A stretch of DNA of 64,000 nt from NCBI RefSeq assembly GCF_024346755.1, contig NZ_AP024861.1:2542001-2606000 (forward strand). The letters are read 5' to 3'. The stretch is from Vibrio aerogenes (GTDB lineage Bacteria; Pseudomonadota; Gammaproteobacteria; Enterobacterales; Vibrionaceae). This document shows positions 6,766-23,104 of this stretch, piece by piece. A program made the position numbers and the translations under genes. The notes beneath the pieces are model-generated. The model saw only the letters and a list, made by a program, of their open reading frames with translations, did not search any database and was not told where the DNA came from. Each line of letters begins with the position of its first letter. Within the stretch, counting starts at the first letter, position 1.

Positions 6766-9156
6766 ATGCATTCACTTATCGAACAAATCAAATCAGGCCA
6801 TATCTGGGATTTTCCCGGCGGGATTCATCCGCCGGAAAATAAAGTCCAGTCGAATAAATGTTCTCCGGCAATGTCACCAATTCCTGCTGAGCTGGTGATT
6901 CCGCTGAAACAGCACATTGGAAAACCGGGCGACCTGCTGGTCAAACCGGGGGATACGGTACTGAAAGGTCAGCAGCTGACACAAACCGCATCGCCGGTGA
7001 TGCTGCCGGTTCATGCTCCGACATCCGGTACTGTCAAGGCCATCGAACAACGCACCATCGCCCATCCCTCCGGACTGACAGAACTCTGTGTGGTGATAAC
7101 GCCCGATCATCGCGGCAAATGGTGTGACCGAATCGTGATCGAAGATTTTAAAACCTGCCAGCCGGAGCACCTGATTGAAGTCATCCGTCAGGCCGGCATT
7201 TCCGGTATGGGCGGCGCCGGGTTCCCGACAGCGAGAAAAATACAGGCCGGGCTGGCCCGGACCGAAGTACTGATGATTAATGCGGCCGAATGTGAGCCCT
7301 ACATCACTGCCGATGATGTGCTGATGCAGTATTACGCAGAAGAAATTATTCAGGGGATTGAAATTACTGAGCACATTCTCAAGCCTCAGACGGTCATTAT
7401 CGGTATTGAAGACAACAAACCAGAAGCTATACGGGCTCTGGAAAAAGCGGCTGTGGACAAAGACTATATTATCCGGGTGATCCCAACCAAATACCCTTCC
7501 GGTGGTGAAAAACAGCTGATTAAAGTCCTGACGAACAAAGAAGTTCCCGCGGGCAAAATCCCGGCAGATATTGGTATCTCGGTGCAAAACGTCGGCACCA
7601 TGTATGCAATCCAGCAAGCCATCATCAAAGGCCAGCCACTGATTCATCGTCTGGTGACGCTGACGGGAAATACCTTCCAGCAACCACGCAACGTCTGGGC
7701 GCTTATCGGTACGCCGGTTGCGCATCTGCTGAAAGAGTTTGATTACACCGCAGATAAAAAACAGCCCCGCTTAATCATGGGCGGTCCGATGATGGGTTTT
7801 ACCCTGCCCCATGCGCAGGTGCCGGTGACCAAAACCACCAACTGTATTCTGGCCCCTTCGGTCAAAGAAATTGCGCCACAACAACATGAATTATCCTGTA
7901 TCCGCTGTGGTCAGTGCGCCGAAGTTTGCCCGGTCTCTTTACTGCCGCAACAACTCTACTGGCACAGTAAAGCCGAAGAATACGATAAATGTCAGGAACT
8001 GAATTTAAAAGACTGTATTGAGTGTGGCGCGTGCGCCTATGTTTGTCCCAGCCACATTCCGCTGGTGCAGTACTACCGTCAGGCAAAAGCTGAAATCAAA
8101 ACACGTGATAATGATGCCGCGGCGGCTGAACGGGCACGTCTCCGGTTTGAAGCCAAACAAGCCCGGCATGAGCGGGAGAAACAGGAAAGAGAGCAACGCT
8201 TTAAAAAAGCTGCGGATAACCGCCGTCAGGAAATGGTCAGGCAGCAAGGGGGGCAGGATGCAATTCAGGCCGCCATTGAACGGGTGAAAGCTCAAAAACA
8301 ACCGGAGCAACCAGACAGTCAGGCAGTCAAACCTGCTGTTGCCGCTGCGATTGCCCGCGCCAAAGCGAAGCAGGAAGCAGCCCGCCAGGCGGGTGCATCT
8401 GAGCCGGATAATCAGGAAATGATGCGCCTGCGTGAAGAACGCAAGCAGCAGGCCCGGGAAAGAAAAGCCGCCAGAACCGGGGCCGAAGCCACAGCAACCA
8501 CCGCATCTCAGGCCGCCCCTGAAGATAAAAAAGCCGCCGTCGCTGCCGCCATTGCCCGCGCCAAAGCGCGCAAGGCGCAGCAACAAGCTGAAACTCAGAA
8601 CACCGCCGCAGACACACCGGCAGCACCCGTGCAAGCAAACGCTAAAAGCGATGCTGCAATTGACGCTGAAACCGGCGCTGAAACCAAAGCCGATGCGCAA
8701 GACCCGAAAAAAGCCGCCGTCGCTGCTGCGATTGCCCGCGCCAAAGCGCGCAAGGCCCAGCAACAGGCTGAAGCTCAGGACACCGCCGCGGACACACCGG
8801 CAGCACCCGCGCAAACAGACGCTGAAAGCGATGCTGCAATTGACGCTGAAACCGCCCCTGAAAACAAAGCCGATGCGCAAGACCCGAAAAAAGCCGCCGT
8901 CGCGGCTGCGATTGCCCGCGCCAAAGCGCGCAAGGCGCAGCAACAGGCTGAAGCTCAGGACACCGCCGCGGACACACCGGCAGCACCCGCGCAAACAGAC
9001 GCTGCAACCAATGCTGCAATTGACGCTGAAACTGCCCCTGAAAGCAAAGCCGATGCGCAAGACCCGAAAAAAGCCGCCGTCGCGGCTGCGATTGCCCGCG
9101 CCAAAGCGCGCAAGGCGCAGCAACAGGCTGAAGCAGAACGCAAGGAGAAACCATAG
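6766..9156 (+). CDS. rsxC: Rsx/Rnf electron transport complex subunit C, with repeated Ala/Lys-rich tail
   Basis: RsxC is the peripheral NADH- and FMN-binding subunit. The start is [19 protein letters not shown] at 6766, 8 bases after rsxB; the in-frame ATG at 6685 lies inside rsxB and is rejected. This gives 796 residues. The glycine-rich [15 protein letters not shown] motif and ESxxE-like [13 protein letters not shown] are present, then two [4Fe-4S] motifs, [12 protein letters not shown] and [12 protein letters not shown]. After residue ~450 comes a long charged coiled-coil/linker. The last ~210 residues hold four near-identical 60-residue repeats centred on [19 protein letters not shown]. 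Such tails are known from gamma-proteobacterial RsxC and vary in repeat number. Confidence 0.95.
8521..9154 (+). repeat. 180-bp in-frame tandem repeat in rsxC
   Basis: Units start at 8521, 8701, 8881 and 9061, with an exact 180-base period; the last unit is truncated by the stop codon. Units 2 to 4 are almost identical, the first is more diverged. Each encodes a [19 protein letters not shown] helix followed by an acidic Ala/Thr/Asp linker. The high DNA identity suggests recent expansion or ongoing homogenisation. Confidence 0.92.
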
Positions 9157-10849: not shown

Positions 10850-11559
10850 ATCCGGAAACCAAAGCCCTAAACCGAAAGCTGATGAAAGACGGTTTGTGGT
10901 CAAATAACCCGGCACTGGTTCAGTTGCTGGGGCTGTGCCCGCTTCTGGCCGTGTCTTCGACCATCACCAATGCACTCGGATTAGGCATTGCCACCATGAT
11001 GGTACTGATTGGCTCAAATGTTACAGTCTCTCTGGTACGGGATTATGTACCGAAGGAAGTGCGGATCCCGGTATTTGTGATGATTATTGCAGCACTGGTC
11101 ACCTGTGTTCAGCTGTTGATGAATGCTTTTGCCTACGGTTTATATCTGTCACTGGGCATTTTTATTCCGTTGATTGTCACGAACTGTATCATCATTGGCC
11201 GTGCAGAAGCGTTTGCTTCAAAAAACCAGGTGGTCCCCGCCATGCTGGACGGGATCTGGATGGGCATGGGTATGACCAGTGCACTGACCGTTTTAGGCGC
11301 AATCCGTGAATTACTCGGTAAAGGGACGCTGTTTGACGGCGCGGATTTGCTGCTGGGTGAGTGGGCGAAAGTGCTGCGGATTGAAGTGGTCCATATTGAT
11401 AACAGCTTCCTGCTGGCACTGCTGCCACCGGGCGCATTTATCTGTGTCGGGTTCCTGATCGCACTGAAATATGTGATCGATCGCTTTATTGCTGCACGGC
11501 AGCCGGAACCAGACAAACCCGTCATTGAACGGGCGCGGGTGACCAAAGTTTCCCAGTAA
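10846..11559 (+). CDS. rsxE: Rsx/Rnf electron transport complex subunit E
   Basis: This 237-residue integral membrane partner of RsxA starts at [21 protein letters not shown] (ATG 10846, overlapping the rsxG stop, with AGGGAGA upstream). An in-frame ATG at 10828 is inside rsxG and less likely. Hallmarks are [22 protein letters not shown] and [20 protein letters not shown]. The C-terminus is cytoplasmic and charged. It is the last rsx gene; nth follows after a hairpin. Confidence 0.96.
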
Positions 11560-11625
11560 AAAAAGTTTCTCAGTAAAAAATAGAAAATGAAGCGTAAACC
11601 AGAACCAGAACAACAAAAATAACAT

Positions 11626-11649
11626 AGGCCCGACTCTCAGTCAGGGCCT
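11626..11649 (+). terminator. Hairpin between rsxE and nth
   Basis: AGGCCC-GACT pairs with AGTC-AGGGCCT (one bulge). No T-run follows, so this may be an attenuator or RNA-stability hairpin rather than a full terminator; nth may be partly co-transcribed with rsx. Confidence 0.5.
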
Positions 11650-11681
11650 GCAGAAGCAAACATTGAGCAGCCGGAAGTCTT

Positions 11682-12317
11682 ATGAACAATCAAAAACGTG
11701 TCGAAATTTTAACGCGCCTGCGGGAACAGAACCCGCATCCGCAAACTGAACTGGAATGGCGCAGTCCGTTTGAGCTGCTTATTTCTGTCCTTCTGTCTGC
11801 GCAGGCAACCGATGTCAGTGTCAATAAAGCCACGGCGAAGCTGTATCCGGTCGCCAACACCCCACAGGCGATATTGGATCTGGGCGTTGAAGGCGTAAAA
11901 GAATATATCAAAACCATTGGCCTGTTTAATTCCAAAGCAGAAAATGTCATCAAAACCTGCCGGATACTGATTGAGAAGCATAATGGTGAAGTACCGGAAG
12001 ACAGAGCGGCTCTGGAGGCACTGCCCGGTGTCGGCAGAAAAACCGCCAACGTCGTGCTCAACACCGCATTCGGCTGGCCAACGATAGCCGTCGATACCCA
12101 TATTTTCCGTGTCTCGAACCGCACCAAATTTGCGATGGGAAAAAATGTCGATGAAGTCGAGCAGAAGCTGCTCAAAGTCGTCCCCAAAGAATTCAAAGTT
12201 GATGTGCACCACTGGCTGATTCTGCATGGCCGCTACACCTGCGTGGCCCGTAAACCGCGCTGCGGCAGCTGCATTATTGAAGATTTATGTGAATTTAAAG
12301 AGAAACTCAGTGATTAA
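11682..12317 (+). CDS. nth: Endonuclease III (DNA glycosylase/AP lyase)
   Basis: This 211-residue enzyme removes oxidised pyrimidines in base excision repair. The helix-hairpin-helix LPGVGRKTANVV carries the catalytic Lys120, and Asp138 is in AVDTHIFRVSNR, numbered as in E. coli. The C-terminal [4Fe-4S] cluster ligands are C187, C194, C197 and C203 (CVARKPRCGSCIIEDLC). Length and motifs are complete. Its stop codon is the first triplet of a 57-bp direct repeat that recurs at 16568, marking this 3' end as the insertion point of an AT-rich island. Confidence 0.98.
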   Translation: MNNQKRVEILTRLREQNPHPQTELEWRSPFELLISVLLSAQATDVSVNKATAKLYPVANTPQAILDLGVEGVKEYIKTIGLFNSKAENVIKTCRILIEKHNGEVPEDRAALEALPGVGRKTANVVLNTAFGWPTIAVDTHIFRVSNRTKFAMGKNVDEVEQKLLKVVPKEFKVDVHHWLILHGRYTCVARKPRCGSCIIEDLCEFKEKLSD

Positions 12318-12371
12318 GAAATCTTGCTCTCATTGTATCCGGGTAGCCTGACGATTCAGGTTACCCGGTTC
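12315..12371 (+). repeat. 57-bp direct repeat, copy 1 (att-like), containing the nth terminator hairpin
   Basis: This copy starts with the nth TAA. It matches 16568-16624 at 55 of 57 bases. Inside it, CCGGGTAGCCTGA (12339-12351) and TCAGGTTACCCGG (12356-12368) form a 13-bp hairpin with a 4-base loop, presumably the nth transcription terminator. Repeats of this kind, made of a gene's last codon plus terminator, are typical of integration or duplication events that preserve the target gene. Confidence 0.9.
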
Positions 12372-12445: not shown

Positions 12446-13009
12446 TCAGTTATATGTATTAAACAGTCTATCACCTGTATCTGGTCCCATTCCAGCTGAA
12501 ATGAATTGCACCTTTGCTCCTTCATACTTGTTATTTGATACTCGTACAGTGTATAAATCGTAGCCCTCAAATAGCTCAGTCGAAGAACTTGGGATCACTG
12601 TTGTAGCAAGTTTTATAGAGTTAACGTCTGGGATTTGGTCTATCAGACCAAAAACACTTTTACCAGAATTTATTACTGCATCAACAATGATGACATCTTT
12701 GTCCTTAGTAAGCTCGAGGTCTTCGCTAGAAACCTTATCATCATTGACGAAAATTATTGAGACATTGCTTCCTAGCTGTTCAAGCTTGTCTGCAATGCCA
12801 ATACCAAAACATAAACCTGCCCGCATTAAAATCAGTACAGCATAGTTTTTTTGTTGATTTGAAGATTTTGATATTGGCTCTGCGATGATCTCTCCTAACT
12901 GACAATGTGCAGTTCGAAGTTTATAGCCCATCGACATTGAACTGCTTTTACAAATCTCAATCAGTTGTTCGACTTCATGGTTTTGGCAGTTTTTATTTAA
13001 TATATACAT
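12446..13009 (-). CDS. Uracil-phosphoribosyltransferase-like PRTase (island gene 4)
   Basis: This 187-residue type I phosphoribosyltransferase relates best to the UPRTase family. Visible motifs are LMRAGLCFGIGIAD (residues 61-74, like the UPRTase LRAG segment), the PRPP loop DVIIVDAVINSGKS (105-118), and a C-terminal MGPDTGDRLFNT that mimics the uracil-binding GDAGDRxFGT of UPRTase. Substitutions in that loop suggest an altered base or product. It is the last gene of the island operon, 13 bases after the kinase/HAD gene. The likely reaction is attachment or release of a nucleobase-like group on ribose-5-phosphate; the substrate is unknown. Confidence 0.75.
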   Translation of the reverse strand: MYILNKNCQNHEVEQLIEICKSSSMSMGYKLRTAHCQLGEIIAEPISKSSNQQKNYAVLILMRAGLCFGIGIADKLEQLGSNVSIIFVNDDKVSSEDLELTKDKDVIIVDAVINSGKSVFGLIDQIPDVNSIKLATTVIPSSSTELFEGYDLYTVRVSNNKYEGAKVQFISAGMGPDTGDRLFNTYN

Positions 13010-13022
13010 AATTATACTTCTT

Positions 13023-14273
13023 CTAGTTCATAGAATTTTTAAGGTTATAAGACACTCCAACATCAAAAATTTGTTTAATATTTGTACACACCACTCCAGC
13101 TAAATAAGATTCCACAGCTTTGTTTAATTTTTCGTGGGCAATCAAATACCCTTGATTTGCTGCTTCTAACATTGGAATGTCAATCATCGAATCACCAATC
13201 GCAACTACGTGTTTGCCTTTTTCTCTTAGTAAATTCGCTATTTCTTTCTTGAACAATGGAGTGACAAGATATTCAATTTCTGAGTTACATGTATTGCCTA
13301 ACAAAACATCAAAAATTTCATATTCTTCATTAACTAAACTCCAAATATCGAATACACCTGACGTAATACCTACAACAGCAGAGTCTTTCTGATTCGCTAA
13401 ATAGTCAAATACACTCTGGCTCAGGTTTATCTTTTGCAAAGTTTGAGTAGCTGATTCTCCCACTTTTATAGGATTTTGTTTTTTGTATAGATTCCATACC
13501 TTAAAAAATTGATATGAGGTATACCTGTCATTTCGAAATACAGATTTTAACTCTTCTTTTTTTATCCCTAAATATCTACAAAAATCATAAGTCCCATCAT
13601 TAATTGAAACTGTCTTATCACAGTCAACAAGGATAACCTTATTTGATTTTTCCAGTAAACTTTTATGTTTGTTATAAAAATTTAGCGCTAAGGTTTGATT
13701 ACAAAGCTTTGAGGAATAAAATTCAAACCAGAAATAAATAAATTTAATACTAGACTTAGTATCTTCATCTAAGATCACTAGTTCTTTTCTGTGATTTTTA
13801 CATATTTTATCTAATTCACATTTTTCATAATTTTTCCAATTTCGAACTTGTTCTACAGTAATATTTAAATTTCTTTTATCTCTTGTGCTTTTTTTTGAAA
13901 AATCCACAATCATTTCTGATGGAGTATCCAAATAGAAGAAGTGGTCGTAAACATTTTCATCCTGTTCAGTGAAGACTACTTTGTGAGAATAACCATCTAT
14001 AAAAGAATAATGACCATCTACTAGCACGAGATCGTATTCCGAATCTTTTTCACTCACGATCTCTGTAAATTTTTCTCGTAATACTTTTTTTCTTGATTCT
14101 TCGAGACTTTTAAAGGATTGCTGGAACATATCTTGAGCAAGAGTATTTAATGTCTTTGAACCCTCAATATGAATAACAGTTAACAGCGTTGTTTCCTTTA
14201 AATAGGCTATTACATTTTTGATTAAATAATCTTTACCAGATCTAGATACCCCATAGATAGCTAACTTCATCAT
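13023..14273 (-). CDS. P-loop kinase fused to a HAD-family phosphatase (island gene 3)
   Basis: This 416-residue protein has two enzymatic halves. Residues 1-190 form a nucleotide/nucleoside-kinase-like P-loop domain with Walker A GVSRSGKD (8-15) and a Walker B-like LVLVDGHY (82-89). Residues 211-400 form a HAD hydrolase related to phosphoserine-phosphatase types: motif I DCDKT (217-221, nucleophile D217), motif II GITSG (302-306), a Lys in motif III (FKKEIANLL) and motif IV GDSMID (360-365). All catalytic residues are present. Its ATG overlaps the radical SAM stop (ATGA). The opposing kinase and phosphatase activities in one chain suggest handling of a phosphorylated small molecule. Confidence 0.75.
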   Translation of the reverse strand: MMKLAIYGVSRSGKDYLIKNVIAYLKETTLLTVIHIEGSKTLNTLAQDMFQQSFKSLEESRKKVLREKFTEIVSEKDSEYDLVLVDGHYSFIDGYSHKVVFTEQDENVYDHFFYLDTPSEMIVDFSKKSTRDKRNLNITVEQVRNWKNYEKCELDKICKNHRKELVILDEDTKSSIKFIYFWFEFYSSKLCNQTLALNFYNKHKSLLEKSNKVILVDCDKTVSINDGTYDFCRYLGIKKEELKSVFRNDRYTSYQFFKVWNLYKKQNPIKVGESATQTLQKINLSQSVFDYLANQKDSAVVGITSGVFDIWSLVNEEYEIFDVLLGNTCNSEIEYLVTPLFKKEIANLLREKGKHVVAIGDSMIDIPMLEAANQGYLIAHEKLNKAVESYLAGVVCTNIKQIFDVGVSYNLKNSMN

Positions 14274-15178
14274 CTAATCTCAACATATTTGTCGTAGTAA
14301 CATTCACCGTCCTCTAGAGACTTCATTTTACCCATTTGAAACTCTAAATTTTCAAGATCCATATCGAATGCACCATAATTGTAATTTTCATTTCCATAAA
14401 ACCTGCCACACGGATAAATACCACGTTTAGTGATAAAAATATTGGTTCGACCAACTCCGCAGAGTGTGCCATACATCGTACAGTCATATTTCTTTTTGTT
14501 ATTTTCATCAAGTTGACGTACTTCGAACTGGCTACCTCTAAAATATTCAAGCAAAGATTGATATTGGTCCTTTGATATTGTCATACTTAGATCATGAGAA
14601 TCAAAAAGACGTGAGAACGTGACATCCTTAAAATTGTTATCTTCAAGGTATGCTCTGAGTTTAGTTTTATTCAAAATGGTTTGGCTATGCACTGTACAGT
14701 TTATAGGTGGCTTATATCCAAATTTAGACTCATACTCTTTCACTCCATTAAAAACGACATTATATTTCTCTCGACCTAAATTATGAAGCTCTTCATAACC
14801 ATCCAATGAGAAGCACATTTTTATCGCATTTTTGTGCTCCAAGAAAAAATTTAACATTTTATCTTTTAATATAGTTCCATTTGTAATGGTATAAAATGCT
14901 AATCGATCTAGATTATTATTCTTTACATACTCGATAAGGCCAACAATTTTTCTATATTGTAATGTAGGCTCACCAGAACCAACTATCCCAATTTTGAAAA
15001 TACTTAAATTATTAGTTTTTGCATAATCATTTAGGTTTTTTGCTATTTTTATTAATTCATCAGTAGTAAATTCTTGTGGTATTCCACTTAACTTGCCATT
15101 GTTTTCATTATGAAAATGGCAGTAAGCACATTTTAAGTTACATTTCTCTCCAAGAGATATACAAGCTCGATCAATCAC
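14270..15178 (-). CDS. Radical SAM protein with truncated SPASM/twitch-like C-terminus (island gene 2)
   Basis: This 302-residue protein has a canonical CNLKCAYC cluster motif (C13, C17, C20) for the SAM-cleaving [4Fe-4S] and a GSGEP motif (67-71) that contacts SAM. Late cysteines C233, C240, C257 and C293, with C240-x12-G-x3-C257 in CGVGRTNIF...GIYPC, look like a twitch or half-SPASM auxiliary cluster. The chain is short for SPASM enzymes. No RiPP precursor is visible nearby, so a nucleotide or other small molecule is a more plausible substrate. It overlaps both neighbours by ATGA, so the genes are tightly co-translated. Confidence 0.8.
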   Translation of the reverse strand: MIDRACISLGEKCNLKCAYCHFHNENNGKLSGIPQEFTTDELIKIAKNLNDYAKTNNLSIFKIGIVGSGEPTLQYRKIVGLIEYVKNNNLDRLAFYTITNGTILKDKMLNFFLEHKNAIKMCFSLDGYEELHNLGREKYNVVFNGVKEYESKFGYKPPINCTVHSQTILNKTKLRAYLEDNNFKDVTFSRLFDSHDLSMTISKDQYQSLLEYFRGSQFEVRQLDENNKKKYDCTMYGTLCGVGRTNIFITKRGIYPCGRFYGNENYNYGAFDMDLENLEFQMGKMKSLEDGECYYDKYVEIR

Positions 15179-16392
15179 TTCAACTTTCCTTTGAACAGTT
15201 CAAATATCTCACTACTTTTCGGATTGTTAGCATCTAAATAGTCAATTGCTGTTTTGTTATTTCTACACCGAATCATCAAATCAGTTCTTTCAATTAGCAC
15301 TCTGACCATTTTTATATCGTGCTTAATACACGCTTTCATCAAAGGTGTGCAACCGTTATTATCTTGTTGATTTGTAGACAAAAAGTAATCTGCCGCTTGT
15401 AGAAACCCGCTCCACGCAGCAATCATTAGAGGTGTATTGCCAACATTCTTACCTCCACTCCCATAGTCAAGATCGGCGCCGTTTTCGCCCAACAGCTTTA
15501 TTATTTCCAATTTTTTAATCTGTGTTGCGTGATGGATAGCTGAGAATCGGTATTTGTGTTTATCCCTTACATCAAGGTTGATTTCTTTTAATGTGAGAAG
15601 GTATTTGAGCATCGGTAGGTCACGATTTCTTACAGCACAAATCAATGGTGTTAAGCCACTATCAGGACTATGAAAATTGACATCAACGCCCCGCATATCA
15701 AAATCCATAGCTTGTTGAAGTTTCATTGATTTGACTAAAGAGCCAAACTCTATAGAGCGCACAACATCATAATCGTTGTCTGAGGTATGGAACTTCTCTA
15801 TGTAAATCTTGGGAGTTATTGCTGTGAGATTTCTTGGTTCTCTGGTCAAGAACTGAAAGTAGATATCATCACTTAGTAAATATACATCATCGTAAGGGCA
15901 AGCTTTCGCTCGCTTGATTGCTACATCAGCGATCTTTTCATCATTGTTTCCATCTGTTTTGATGCTTTTTTCTATACAAAATTTTACTTGCTTCTCAGTA
16001 ATGGATTTCATTATCAACCAAGCTTTTTGTTTTGCAGAAGAGTTGCCTCGGTCTTTCAGATTATTCAATTCCGAAACGACTACTTCTGGAATCACGATTT
16101 CTTCAAAGAATTCTTCAAGTTCATCAATGATCGATGGTCTTTTGATCAACGCCGAGGTATCAACAACGATAACCTTTCTCTTGATTGAAGTATTACCGAC
16201 TAACTCATCAGTCGAAGTTTTGAATATTTTCGATAGTTTTAGTAGTTGAGACGAAGACGGCTCGTTTTTCCCGTTTTCCCAATTTGATATCACTGGTCTG
16301 GTAACGTTAAGTTGCTCAGCAAGTTCTTTTTGAGACAGCTTTTGTTCATCTCTAAATGTTTTGATGTTCTTTCCGATTAGCTCTGTCAGCAT
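15175..16392 (-). CDS. XRE HTH - PIN nuclease - ankyrin repeat protein (island gene 1)
   Basis: This 405-residue, three-part protein opens the island operon. Residues 1-62 are an XRE/Cro HTH (QKLSQKELAEQLNVTRPVIS). Residues 73-200 are a PIN domain with acidic residues in place: D79 in VVDTSAL, E108 in VVSELNNL, D151/D156 in NDEKIADVA, and D175/D176 in LLSDDIYF. This set fits an active Mg2+-dependent RNase. Residues ~225-395 carry about five ankyrin repeats (GLTPLICAVRN, NTPLMIAAWSG, GCTPLMKACIK and so on). It could be both autoregulator and RNase effector, with the ankyrins sensing a partner protein. The fusion of these three domains is unusual. Confidence 0.8.
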   Translation of the reverse strand: MLTELIGKNIKTFRDEQKLSQKELAEQLNVTRPVISNWENGKNEPSSSQLLKLSKIFKTSTDELVGNTSIKRKVIVVDTSALIKRPSIIDELEEFFEEIVIPEVVVSELNNLKDRGNSSAKQKAWLIMKSITEKQVKFCIEKSIKTDGNNDEKIADVAIKRAKACPYDDVYLLSDDIYFQFLTREPRNLTAITPKIYIEKFHTSDNDYDVVRSIEFGSLVKSMKLQQAMDFDMRGVDVNFHSPDSGLTPLICAVRNRDLPMLKYLLTLKEINLDVRDKHKYRFSAIHHATQIKKLEIIKLLGENGADLDYGSGGKNVGNTPLMIAAWSGFLQAADYFLSTNQQDNNGCTPLMKACIKHDIKMVRVLIERTDLMIRCRNNKTAIDYLDANNPKSSEIFELFKGKLK

Positions 16393-16887
16393 AATTTACA
16401 CTCATATCCTTTTATTATGCAATCACAATCTCATGTGTATTGAAACATATCAGGACGTTAACGGAGACACAAGAAACAGGTTACTAATGTATAAATACTT
16501 TACAGCGCGTAACGATACGTAACACTCATTCTGTGTGAGCTATCTATGGTGATTTCTGGGGGGTGAGTAAGAGATCTTGCTCTCATTGCATCCGGGTAGC
16601 CTGACGATTCAGGTTACCCGGTTCTGTACTTAACGTTTAGGCGCAGGAAAATGATAAATCAGGCCGACAAACCGACTTTCACCTGCAACCTGAGCGCTCC
16701 GGATATTTCATGTGTGTTCAATCACATATAGATACATTCGCAACATTTTCTTTACACAACAAACTACACTAAAACATATATGCAGCACGTTTATGCCAAT
16801 AAGAAAGATATTCGTATCCGGAGAACCTTCGGGTTCAGTCTTTACCGGGGTAATCAATGAACAAAGTCAGCAGGAAAGGTAAACGAT
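16393..16887. promoter_or_regulatory. Intergenic region: island boundary, CRP-like site and leader hairpin
   Basis: This stretch holds the presumed promoter of the island operon (leftward; XRE autoregulation is likely), the second 57-bp repeat (16568-16624) and the upstream region of the muramidase gene. TGTGTGTTCAATCACA (16711-16726) matches 9 of 10 key bases of the CRP consensus TGTGA-N6-TCACA. In the presumed leader, GAACC-TTCG-GGTTC (16823-16836) forms a hairpin with a stable UUCG tetraloop about 50 bases before the start codon. No gene is supported. Confidence 0.45.
16568..16624 (+). repeat. 57-bp direct repeat, copy 2 (att-like)
   Basis: It matches 12315-12371 with two substitutions and includes the same 13-bp hairpin. 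There is no gene ending here, so this copy is an orphan terminator and marks the right edge of the island. Confidence 0.9.
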
Positions 16888-17433
16888 ATGATTGATTTCA
16901 ACTTTATCGAACAATGTGAAGGCTTACATTGTCAGGGCTATATACCAGAACATCACCATGAAGCAGGCGTCCATATTGCCTGTGGTCTGGATCTGAGTGT
17001 CTACAGAAAGCATGATTTACTCACCCACGGACTGCCGGAAATACTGGTTGCAAAGTTATCCCCCTATCTGGGACTGAAAAACCATGCTGCTGCTGAAGCG
17101 CTGCGAAATAAACCGCTGCACATCAGCGAGAAAGAGGCTCAGTTAATCAACCAGTTATTCCATCATCAGGTATCATCGCGGCTGAAAAGACAATGGCCGA
17201 AATCATACCGCACAGTGCCTTTTGAAAATCTTCCCGATGCATGTCAGACCGTTGTCGCTTCCGTTGCCCACCAGTACGGGAATCTGTCGACACGCACACC
17301 TCACTTCTGGCATCAGTGCACGACCGGTGACTGGCATGATGTTTATAATAATCTGATGCACTTTGGAGATCATTATCCGGAACGCAGACAGCGTGAAGCC
17401 CGTTTGCTGAGCCAATGCCTCGATAATCAGTGA
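16888..17433 (+). CDS. Pesticin/GH24-like muramidase
   Basis: This 181-residue protein resembles the catalytic domain of pesticin and phage-type lysozymes. The N-terminal FIEQCEG carries the expected catalytic Glu (E11, in EG), followed by GVHIACGLDLS, which matches the pesticin-type VTIGTGFDL motif. It would cleave the MurNAc-GlcNAc bond of peptidoglycan. There is no signal peptide, so export would need lysis, a secretion system or a holin; no immunity protein is evident beside it. A CRP-like site and a leader hairpin lie upstream. It could be a phage remnant, a bacteriocin or a T6SS-type effector; I cannot decide between these. Confidence 0.6.
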   Translation: MIDFNFIEQCEGLHCQGYIPEHHHEAGVHIACGLDLSVYRKHDLLTHGLPEILVAKLSPYLGLKNHAAAEALRNKPLHISEKEAQLINQLFHHQVSSRLKRQWPKSYRTVPFENLPDACQTVVASVAHQYGNLSTRTPHFWHQCTTGDWHDVYNNLMHFGDHYPERRQREARLLSQCLDNQ

Positions 17434-22486: not shown

Positions 22487-23104
22487 TTAATGCCCCGGCG
22501 ACGGGAAATGATAAATCAGATTCAGGTGAAAAGTACCGACGGTATCTTTACCATGATAAGTTGTTCCGGAAACCACCTGAGAAAAGTTGTGATCATAAAT
22601 CCGCATCCACTCAACTTCCAGTTCTACCGGATTGCCGTTATTGACCGCAAAACCAATTCCGTAAATAAAATCATTCTCCGTGTTGGCAAGTCCGCCAACC
22701 GAAAACTTTGTCCGGCCGGCTCCGGCAATGATATAAGGCCTGAACGATTCATCCAGTGGAATAATCCCTTTTGCTAACAGCGCGTAATGCCGGTCAACAG
22801 AGACTGAAATACCAGCCAGCGCATCGTCTTCAGCATTACCATATCCACGCGCTTCAACCGCAAAATTCTCATGGAACTGATATCCGAGATGCACGCCAAT
22901 CAGAATATTGTCAAAACTCGCTTCTCCGACCCCGGATACTTTTTCTTTCATATCTGCCAGTGCAAATCCCATCCCCATGTACATGTGCCGCTGATAACCA
23001 TCAGAAAACGAGTTATCCTGCTGCTCTTCTGCGGCCAGCACAGTGCCTGCCATCAGGAAGAGCAATAAACCGGTGATTAACCGCCGGCAGTGATATCCCT
23101 TCAT
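22487..23104 (-). CDS. Outer-membrane beta-barrel protein (OmpA/OmpX-like small porin fold)
   Basis: The start MKGYHCRRLITG (ATG 23104) has GAGAGG upstream and begins a signal peptide ending AGTVLA; the frame upstream to 23158 is not needed. The mature ~170 residues show alternating hydrophobic strands (YMGMGFALADM, NILIGVHLGYQF, VEARGYGN, YALLAKGIIPL, YIIAGAGRTKF, FIYGIGFAVNN, VELEVEWMRIY, FHLNLIYHF) and end in a strand typical of 8-stranded barrels. It resembles Vibrio OMP_b-brl proteins. Function is unknown. Confidence 0.75.
   Translation of the reverse strand: MKGYHCRRLITGLLLFLMAGTVLAAEEQQDNSFSDGYQRHMYMGMGFALADMKEKVSGVGEASFDNILIGVHLGYQFHENFAVEARGYGNAEDDALAGISVSVDRHYALLAKGIIPLDESFRPYIIAGAGRTKFSVGGLANTENDFIYGIGFAVNNGNPVELEVEWMRIYDHNFSQVVSGTTYHGKDTVGTFHLNLIYHFPSPGH

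What the first reader, a model, noticed from the sequence alone, without database searches (positions are those of the whole stretch)
12446..16392. Candidate undescribed system: XRE-PIN-ankyrin + radical SAM + kinase/HAD + UPRTase-like operon
The first three genes overlap by ATGA and the fourth starts 13 bases later. The operon combines a DNA-binding RNase-ankyrin protein with a three-enzyme small-molecule set: radical SAM with auxiliary-cluster Cys, a kinase fused to a phosphatase, and a PRPP-using transferase with a UPRTase-like base pocket. One reading is a pathway making or removing a nucleotide-like signal or modified nucleotide, with the PIN protein as the regulated effector, in a conflict/defence setting. 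I know of no named system with this composition; viperins and Ter-associated clusters are only loosely analogous.
Basis: partly seen in the sequence, partly recalled or inferred. Interest (0 to 1): 0.88.

Follow-up and report, generated by a model that had tools for sequence, protein, structure and literature searches.

The report
Mobile four-gene radical-SAM/PIN nuclease system
A compact set of four genes, in which a DNA-binding RNA-cutting protein is accompanied by three enzymes that look able to make a nucleotide-like molecule, recurs in one fixed order in bacteria and phages that are only distantly related, and it appears to be an undescribed, mobile, defence-like system.

Summary
The four genes are real and form a conserved unit. 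XRE-PIN-ankyrin > radical SAM > kinase-HAD > UPRTase-like occurs in this order in all 19 loci read whose contig spans it (Vibrionaceae, Neptuniibacter, Pasteurellaceae, Clostridia, four IMG/VR contigs); two more loci are cut. In three of the 19 the PRT is fused to kinase-HAD; in one, kinase-HAD is frameshifted. Active-site residues are almost invariant. The unit is rare (4 of 227 genomes of the genus, this one included), AT-rich, flanked here by a 62-bp direct repeat, and elsewhere carried by temperate phages or lies near retron or Abi genes. The three enzymes diverge together (r 0.90-0.96); PIN-Ank does so less and has apparently been exchanged between enzyme sets. One phage pairs an HTH-bearing copy with a dead PIN and an HTH-less copy with an intact one. 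No library or paper searched names the combination. Best reading: a mobile conflict system whose enzymes make (and whose HAD removes) a nucleotide-like signal read by the ankyrin repeats to control the PIN RNase.

The parts
15175..16392 (-). Gene 1: XRE helix-turn-helix (about residues 7-65) + PIN RNase domain (about 75-200) + ankyrin repeats (about 228-400), 405 aa; proposed autoregulator, sensor and effector
   Evidence: PIN residues D78/E108/D151/D176 in 19/21/19/21 of 21 proteins
14270..15178 (-). Gene 2: radical SAM protein, GTG start, CxxxCxxC at C13/C17/C20 and four further Cys C233/C240/C257/C293 (twitch/SPASM-like auxiliary cluster, inferred), 302 aa
   Evidence: all seven Cys in 20 of 20 loci; in the wider alignment A2 one of 20 rows has Ser for C257
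13023..14273 (-). Gene 3: N-terminal P-loop kinase (GVSRSGKD, DGHY) fused to C-terminal HAD phosphatase (DCDKT, GDSMID), 416 aa
   Evidence: G8/G13/K14/D86/H88 and D217/D219/T221/D361/D365 in 19 of 19
12446..13009 (-). Gene 4: UPRTase-fold phosphoribosyltransferase with PRPP loop VIIVDAVINSGKS and C-terminal GPDTGDRLF, 187 aa; fused to gene 3 in some lineages
   Evidence: D110/N114/G116 and G175-T178/R181/F183 in 19 of 19; fusions
16393..16525 (-). Upstream control region, conserved between five Vibrionaceae copies; the window's limit is read by eye from the alignment
   Evidence: the five are not all independent: L010 and L011 share their upstream flank, L009 and L038 share an upstream ORF
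16500..16512 (-). TTACGCGCTGTAA upstream of gene 1; the other four copies have the perfect palindrome TTACACGCTGTAA; candidate operator for the XRE domain
   Evidence: two matches in the window with one mismatch allowed (this exact one, and 22775-22787 with one mismatch), 0.18 expected; alignment
12310..12371 (+). Direct repeat, copy 1: end of nth with its terminator-like hairpin
   Evidence: the only two copies that the genome searches showed are this and the next
16563..16624 (+). Direct repeat, copy 2 (95% identical) on the far side of the unit: likely footprint of its insertion

Best explanation
A mobile, four-gene genetic-conflict system that probably acts against phages. The PIN domain of gene 1 is the effector, an RNase; its XRE domain represses the operon; its ankyrin repeats sense. 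Genes 2-4 form one small-molecule pathway: the UPRTase-like enzyme joins a uracil-like base to PRPP (or takes it off), the radical SAM enzyme carries out a radical step on that nucleotide or its precursor, and the kinase and HAD halves of gene 3 add and remove a phosphate, setting the level of a nucleotide-like signal. The signal binds the conserved face of the ankyrin repeats and switches the PIN RNase and/or operator binding on infection. Shown: gene set, order, residue conservation, fusions, mobility, separate history of PIN-Ank and the enzymes. Inferred: substrates, the signal, the ankyrin repeats as its receptor, RNA as target, phage as trigger.
For: Same gene set and order in 19 of 19 readable loci over two phyla and phages. 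The enzymes act together: PRT fused to kinase-HAD in L014, L097, L098 and in four 599-aa proteins, one named Campylobacter showae; enzyme distances correlate at 0.90-0.96. Catalytic residues kept in all parts. PIN-Ank is a separable unit: L036/L042 and L034/L035/L041 have rSAM 70-76% identical but PIN-Ank only 25-32% identical, the PIN-Ank grouping with other lineages at 100/100 support; enzyme sets that accept foreign effectors suggest a shared diffusible signal. In L041 the HTH-bearing copy has lost two PIN Asp (one to His, one to Lys) and the HTH-less second copy keeps all four residues; in L096 that second copy is reduced by an internal deletion while the enzyme genes stay open, as expected of a costly effector. 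Among 19 proteins with an active PIN, positions conserved in at least 90% of rows are densest in the ankyrin repeats (30 of 173; PIN 13 of 127; XRE 5 of 66, one row having no XRE). Phage carriage next to holin, endolysin and integrase genes in L041; retron VI RT (250.8 bits), AbiLi (109.2 bits) or SNF2-PLD genes near other copies. PRTase and HAD enzymes making a nucleotide-like threat signal have been proposed for Ter systems (PMC7824862, passages).
Against: No biochemical or phage data. The rSAM is closest to peptide- and protein-modifying SPASM enzymes. The kinase substrate cannot be told from sequence. PIN may cut something other than RNA. Defence genes were looked for in PADLOC with only ten neighbours from five loci, and four of those ten had no match. 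The unit was not found, with genes 2 and 3 as queries, in 50,697 phage or 72,556 plasmid records, so the phage link rests on four IMG/VR contigs. The exchange of PIN-Ank is read from trees with long deep branches (the program warns of this), and the rSAM group of L034/L035/L036/L041/L042 has support of only 84/87. The dead-PIN copy is the only full-length PIN-Ank left in L096, so that system may be inactive or may work without cleavage.
Confidence: 0.4

Rival explanations
1. The radical SAM enzyme modifies the PIN-ankyrin protein itself (a cross-link, epimer or similar in the conserved ankyrin loops), switching the RNase; kinase-HAD and PRT supply or reverse a further modification.
For: Nearest described relatives of the rSAM are SPASM/twitch enzymes acting on peptides or proteins: PapB model 90.1 bits, PDB 5wgg 77.5 (I recall it as CteB) and anaerobic sulfatase-maturating enzyme 66.8. 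Four extra Cys in 20 of 20 loci. Gene 1 always accompanies it in the loci read and its ankyrin part has invariant residues beyond what I recall of the repeat consensus (Q291, S312, N316, K353). The gene overlaps leave no room for a separate precursor peptide inside the window's operon.
Against: PRT and kinase-HAD are typical of small-molecule chemistry and are as constant as the rSAM. PIN-Ank appears to be exchanged between enzyme sets, which a co-evolved enzyme-substrate pair would resist, though the invariant ankyrin residues could be the modified site.
Confidence: 0.2
2. Viperin-like: the enzymes make a chain-terminating or otherwise antiviral nucleotide analogue, and PIN-Ank is a second arm or the regulator.
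For: rSAM + kinase + PRT; rSAM matches PADLOC pVip models at 48.9 and 38.6 bits and the NCBIfam viperin model at 47.9.
Against: Far under NCBIfam's viperin cut-off of 180 and weaker than the PapB match; an auxiliary-cluster Cys set absent from viperins (recalled); a fused HAD phosphatase might undo the kinase step; it does not explain why PIN-Ank was missing from none of the 19 loci.
Confidence: 0.13
3. Addiction or toxin-antitoxin module: PIN-Ank is a toxin held off by the products or proteins of genes 2-4; selfish maintenance, not defence.
For: PIN domain with its own HTH, palindrome upstream, mobile and rare. In L096 the active PIN copy is mostly deleted while the enzyme genes are kept.
Against: In Vibrio mimicus CAIM 602 (L011) gene 3 is broken by a frameshift while PIN-Ank is open, so intact kinase-HAD is not needed to live with PIN-Ank (one draft genome; could be a sequencing error; intact V. 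mimicus copies exist). Antitoxins made of three enzymes are unusual (recalled).
Confidence: 0.15
4. RNA cleavage and repair: PIN cuts RNA and kinase-HAD, like T4 polynucleotide kinase-phosphatase, heals the ends.
For: Kinase N-terminal and HAD C-terminal, the order recalled for T4 Pnk, beside an RNase.
Against: No RNA ligase gene within the unit (flanks were not searched for one); HAD is of the PF12710/phosphoserine-phosphatase type (1f5s 21.4 bits, E 0.001) and no PNK family is among the matches; rSAM and PRT are unexplained.
Confidence: 0.04
5. Ordinary metabolic operon (pyrimidine salvage or cofactor synthesis) with its regulator.
For: Enzyme classes typical of metabolism; XRE protein first.
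Against: Host has its own upp; matches to the listed housekeeping equivalogs are far below cut-off; sporadic, AT-rich, mobile, phage-borne; with a PIN protein in all 19 loci.
Confidence: 0.03

Closest known systems
Ter-associated PRTase/HAD nucleoside-like pathway (read here through passages of PMC7824862)
   Same: PRTase and HAD enzymes proposed to make a nucleotide-like threat signal, with separate sensors or effectors
   Different: The passages name no radical SAM, P-loop kinase fusion or PIN-ankyrin effector for it; I ran no search for TerB or TerD beside these loci
Prokaryotic viperins (pVip)
   Same: Radical SAM enzyme in a defence-like setting, sometimes with a kinase (PADLOC's model names say so)
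   Different: Score far below the viperin cut-off; four extra Cys; PRT, HAD and PIN-Ank added
CBASS and similar signal-gated effector systems (recalled)
   Same: Works-like analogy: enzyme makes a nucleotide signal, exchangeable effector reads it
   Different: No cyclase; the enzymes are of other superfamilies; signal unknown
VapBC and other PIN toxins
   Same: PIN nuclease with full acidic tetrad
   Different: HTH and PIN in one protein with ankyrin repeats, no small antitoxin, three enzymes
PIN defence systems DS-3 and DS-5 of DefensePredictor (PMC13092281, passages)
   Same: PIN catalytic residues needed for phage defence there
   Different: DS-3 is one protein, DS-5 has a partner with DUF5830 and an AcrIF4-like domain; no rSAM, kinase-HAD or PRT is mentioned with them in the passages
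SPASM/twitch radical SAM enzymes (PapB model; PDB 5wgg, recalled as CteB; anaerobic sulfatase-maturating enzyme)
   Same: Closest sequence relatives of gene 2; Cys in the C-terminal part
   Different: No precursor peptide gene in the operon; 90.1 bits against the PapB cut-off of 340
Uracil phosphoribosyltransferase (Upp)
   Same: PF14681 match from residue 31 to 185, PRPP loop and C-terminal end included
   Different: 25.3 bits against the equivalog cut-off of 208.35; the host has a separate true upp

Membership tests
Prokaryotic viperin | NCBIfam NF038283 cut-off 180 bits | tested here: not met
   47.9 bits; PADLOC pVip 48.9 and 38.6 bits
Prokaryotic viperin | Makes a ddh-nucleotide | not testable with these tools
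   needs an enzyme assay
PapB-type ranthipeptide maturase | NF047865 cut-off 340 bits | tested here: not met
   90.1 bits
PapB-type ranthipeptide maturase | A precursor peptide gene nearby | tested here: inconclusive
   genes overlap by 4 bases or lie 13 bases apart, so none inside the operon; the flanks were not searched for one
Radical SAM superfamily | CxxxCxxC and Pfam cut-off | tested here: met
   PF04055 45.6 bits over 29.5; C13/C17/C20 in 20 of 20
PIN nuclease | Four acidic active-site residues | tested here: met
   D78, E108, D151, D176 in 19, 21, 19 and 21 of 21; both exceptions are the HTH-bearing paralogue of L041 and L096
Type II toxin-antitoxin (VapBC) | Small antitoxin gene beside a PIN toxin | tested here: not met
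   gene 1 carries its own HTH and is followed by the rSAM gene in the readable loci, save that a second PIN-Ank (L041) or its remnant (L096) stands between
Housekeeping Upp | TIGR01091 cut-off 208.35 bits | tested here: not met
   25.3 bits; true upp elsewhere in the genome, 299.6 bits
UPRTase superfamily | Pfam PF14681 cut-off | tested here: met
   42.1 bits over 27
T4 Pnk-like RNA repair | PNK kinase/phosphatase families | tested here: not met
   no PNK family among the Pfam or NCBIfam matches up to E 0.1
T4 Pnk-like RNA repair | An RNA ligase partner | tested here: inconclusive
   none within the unit; flanks not searched for one
Ter systems | TerB/TerD/TerC genes in the cluster | not tested
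   neighbours were not scanned for Ter families
Any defence system in PADLOC-DB 2023 | Full-length matches to a system's models for these proteins | tested here: not met
   no hit for PRT up to E 0.1, 0.011 for kinase-HAD, single-domain hits for gene 1, pVip at 48.9 bits for gene 2
Anti-phage defence system | Reduces phage infection | not testable with these tools
   needs phage assays

The most novel reading that the evidence does not exclude
A radical-SAM-made nucleotide second messenger of bacterial immunity: a uracil-derived nucleotide, built by the UPRTase-like, radical SAM and kinase domains and erased by the fused HAD domain, is read by ankyrin repeats that gate a PIN RNase. It would be an immune signalling chemistry of its own, with exchangeable PIN-ankyrin effectors.
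Probability: 0.25. Interest if true: 0.95.

Novelty: categorically new. Interest (0 to 1): 0.8.

Why it matters
If the reading is right, a known class of RNase effector is governed by an unknown small molecule made by a radical enzyme, opening an immune signalling chemistry and a tractable four-gene system to study it. Even without the mechanism, a conserved, mobile gene set shared by Gammaproteobacteria, Clostridia and temperate phages, with its active sites kept and no name in the libraries searched, defines a concrete target: four proteins of 187-416 aa with predicted catalytic residues to mutate, natural fusions, and a natural separation of regulator and effector.

Tried and rejected
Structure prediction was asked for twice and was not available, so no fold comparison was made; kinase class and ankyrin binding face rest on sequence alone. 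PDB sequence searches gave no relative for the kinase half: the matches lie in the HAD half, and one weak match (8ain_B, E 0.011, residues 54-117) falls in the kinase half but bears no kinase name and did not return with the profile. Phage, plasmid and E. coli collections gave no match (E. coli at DNA level only). A clean empty site for the insertion after nth was sought in 60 other relatives and 226 other genomes of the genus; nth was found widely (58 of 61 and 128 of 227 genomes, this one counted), but no other genome's match ran past position 81 of the 132-base query, so the terminator was not seen elsewhere and the insertion is argued from the repeat, base composition and sporadic occurrence. 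A direct-repeat footprint was looked for in 11 other loci and seen flanking the unit in one, L037. Comparing contig lengths in protein listings as a proxy for co-occurrence gave 29 of 97 PIN rows sharing a contig length with a kinase-HAD or rSAM row (about 0.6 expected by chance, estimated for contigs under 20 kb); since two of the three lists are cut at 120 rows this is a lower bound and I do not lean on it. L045 is an unrelated ankyrin array and was dropped. L013 and L044 are cut by contig ends and were left out of the 19. A first count of invariant columns gave none in XRE, but one row (the second PIN-Ank of L041) has no XRE, so I give the 90% counts instead.

Nine paper searches combined radical SAM, PIN domain, ankyrin, phosphoribosyltransferase, kinase, viperin, Ter and phage-defence terms; no listing showed a paper on the combination, and the library lacks most subscription papers and all preprints. 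Passages of four papers were seen: PMC13092281, PMC10853773, PMC7641849, PMC7824862; the other papers were seen as listings only.
Full report
WHAT IS THERE. Four minus-strand genes, 16392 down to 12446: XRE-PIN-ankyrin (405 aa), radical SAM (302 aa), P-loop kinase-HAD (416 aa), UPRTase-like PRT (187 aa). The first pair overlaps by GTGA, the second by ATGA, the fourth gene follows after 13 bases. The unit lies between nth (with the rsx genes before it; rsx names recalled from the proteins, nth also by HhH-GPD and EndIII_4Fe-2S matches) and a Pesticin-domain gene. It is 33.7% G+C against 52.2% and 47.7% on its two sides, and a 62-bp repeat of the end of nth and its terminator-like hairpin stands on both sides, 95% identical, 4253 bases apart; no third copy was found in the genome.

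IT IS A CONSERVED SYSTEM. Kinase-HAD relatives number 181 at E <= 0.001, rSAM relatives 425 at E <= 1e-10 (120 listed in each) and PIN-region relatives 97 at E <= 1e-5, of which 92 carry HTH, PIN and ankyrin families by my count of the listing. Named sources include Vibrio, Photobacterium, Pasteurella, Actinobacillus, Neisseria, Pseudoalteromonas and Campylobacter; most rows are unnamed. Neighbourhoods were read in 21 loci with a bona fide part of the unit: the window and L009-L016, L034-L038 (PRT of L036), L041-L044, L096-L098; the short loci lie inside L034-L038. In 19 the contig reaches over the whole unit, and all 19 have the four parts in the same order; in three of them (L014, L097, L098) the PRT is fused to kinase-HAD, in L011 gene 3 is frameshifted, and L041 has a second PIN-Ank (L096 a remnant of one). 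L013 (three of four visible) and L044 (only gene 1, its stretch like that of L043) are cut. Baits were gene 3, gene 2 and, in viral contigs only, gene 1 and gene 4, so the linkage is not an effect of one bait; the one returned locus without the unit, L045, is an unrelated ankyrin array.

IT IS RARE AND MOBILE. 7 loci by pattern search among one genome for each of 84,980 species (patterns restrictive); 4 of 227 genomes of the genus, this one included; 1 of 299 of the phylum sample, that one being this genome; 4 of 392 in the order of the clostridial genome G524, itself included; 2 of 140 in the family of G525, itself included; 5 of 299 in the family of G864, itself included. None in E. coli (DNA search), plasmid or INPHARED phage records (protein searches with genes 2 and 3). 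Four IMG/VR contigs carry it whole. In L041 it follows tail, holin and endolysin genes and precedes an integrase of the serine-recombinase kind (scored; L048 is the same contig); L043 looks alike by sequence, its neighbours mostly unscored; this is a usual place of lysogenic-conversion genes (recalled). In L016 it lies between portal and terminase genes. A NERD-domain gene follows it in L041 and L043 (Pfam), and by sequence likeness in L042, L036 and L097. In L037 a retron type VI-like RT (250.8 bits) lies upstream and a 300-bp direct repeat of a DJ-1/PfpI-like gene (name recalled) flanks the unit. L035 has AbiLi-like (109.2 bits) and weaker Nhi/AbiO-like neighbours, L012 an SNF2-PLD protein. 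L010 and L014 have integrases. Ten neighbours from five loci were scored against PADLOC; four had no match (one of L035, one of L041, two of L010).

THE PARTS ARE UNDER SELECTION. dN/dS between Vibrionaceae copies is 0.00-0.27, apart from one pair too close to count. Radical SAM: all seven Cys, three for the SAM cluster and four in the C-terminal part, in 20 of 20. Kinase G8, G13, K14, D86, H88 and HAD D217, D219, T221, G360, D361, D365 in 19 of 19; PRT D110, N114, G116, G175-P176-D177-T178, R181, F183 in 19 of 19, K117 and N160 in 18. PIN tetrad in 19, 21, 19 and 21 of 21. The PRT matches the UPRTase model to its very end (profile 43-206 of 206); the GPDTGDRLF stretch there is where UPRTases hold uracil (recalled).

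THREE OBSERVATIONS ON MECHANISM. First, the enzymes behave as one unit: distances of rSAM, kinase-HAD and PRT correlate at 0.90-0.96, but only 0.70-0.77 with PIN-Ank (17 loci; 0.65-0.71 with 18 loci, where the dead-PIN copies stood for L041 and L096). Second, PIN-Ank seems to have been exchanged: L034, L035, L036, L041 and L042 have rSAM 70-76% identical to one another (as a group 84/87 support), yet the PIN-Ank of L034/L035/L041 groups with L014 (100/100, 47-55% identity), whose rSAM is only 34-37% identical to theirs, and that of L036/L042 with L043/L097/L098 (100/100, 50-58%), with 25-32% between the two sets (long deep branches are a caveat). An enzyme set that accepts foreign effectors speaks for a common diffusible signal rather than a tightly co-evolved enzyme-substrate pair. 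Third, regulator and effector can part: L041 has an HTH-bearing PIN-Ank with two catalytic Asp changed to His and Lys, followed by an HTH-less PIN-Ank with all four residues; L096 has the dead one, while of the second only about the first 13 and the last 43 residues remain, the enzyme genes staying open. This suggests that PIN catalysis is the costly output.

REGULATION. About 130 bases upstream of gene 1 are conserved between five Vibrionaceae copies, including TTACACGCTGTAA in four and TTACGCGCTGTAA in the window (16500-16512), a candidate operator for the XRE domain. The five are not all independent (L010/L011 and L009/L038 share upstream sequence).

WHAT IT IS NOT. It fails the cut-offs for viperin, PapB-type maturases and Upp, the host has its own upp, and no PADLOC system covers the set. 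The rSAM's nearest solved relatives are 5wgg (recalled as CteB) and an anaerobic sulfatase-maturating enzyme, which act on peptides and proteins, so direct modification of PIN-Ank is the main rival. The PRTase + HAD signal idea has a precedent in Ter systems (passages of PMC7824862), and PIN domains have been validated as phage-defence effectors (passages of PMC13092281), but neither describes this set.

VERDICT. A real, conserved, mobile four-gene system for which I found no name. A conflict role seems likely to me (about 0.7, inference); the exact mechanism is open (0.4 for the nucleotide-signal model as a whole). I call it categorically new because no system that I could find shares its composition; the logic of signal and exchangeable effector resembles CBASS, as an analogy only.

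Noticed in passing
window 16888-17433: Pesticin-domain (phage-lysozyme-like toxin homologue) gene, PF16754 141.1 bits and phrog_24780 177.9 bits, directly beside the unit on the other strand; its DNA was found in none of 40 other relatives but for a 37-base match in one.
   Followed up: partly
window about 8430-9156: The C-terminal end of the large RsxC-like protein holds repeated Ala/Lys/Gln-rich blocks ([22 protein letters not shown]), which also go with long ORFs in other frames that look spurious.
   Followed up: no
L036, L041, L042, L043, L097: A NERD-domain or NERD-like gene of about 326-390 aa follows the PRT (or the PRT-fused gene 3) in several clostridial and phage loci; it may be an optional fifth part.
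   Followed up: partly
L011:7998-9247: Vibrio mimicus CAIM 602 has gene 3 broken by a frameshift with the other three genes open.
   Followed up: partly
L037:6239-6538 and 11386-11685: A DJ-1/PfpI-like gene is partly duplicated on both sides of the unit (300 bp, 96%), a second case of a direct repeat around it.
   Followed up: partly
window 15175-16392: Relative to L009 and L038, this copy of gene 1 lacks four residues in one ankyrin repeat, just before NQQDN.
   Followed up: no
L009:1-744 and L038:11674-11892: Two loci in different genera share a similar ORF just upstream of the unit, perhaps a remnant of the element that moved it.
   Followed up: no
L035:7333-7773 and L034:10930-11232: Two small genes without a clear family and of loosely similar start lie just upstream of gene 1 in two clostridial loci.
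   Followed up: no
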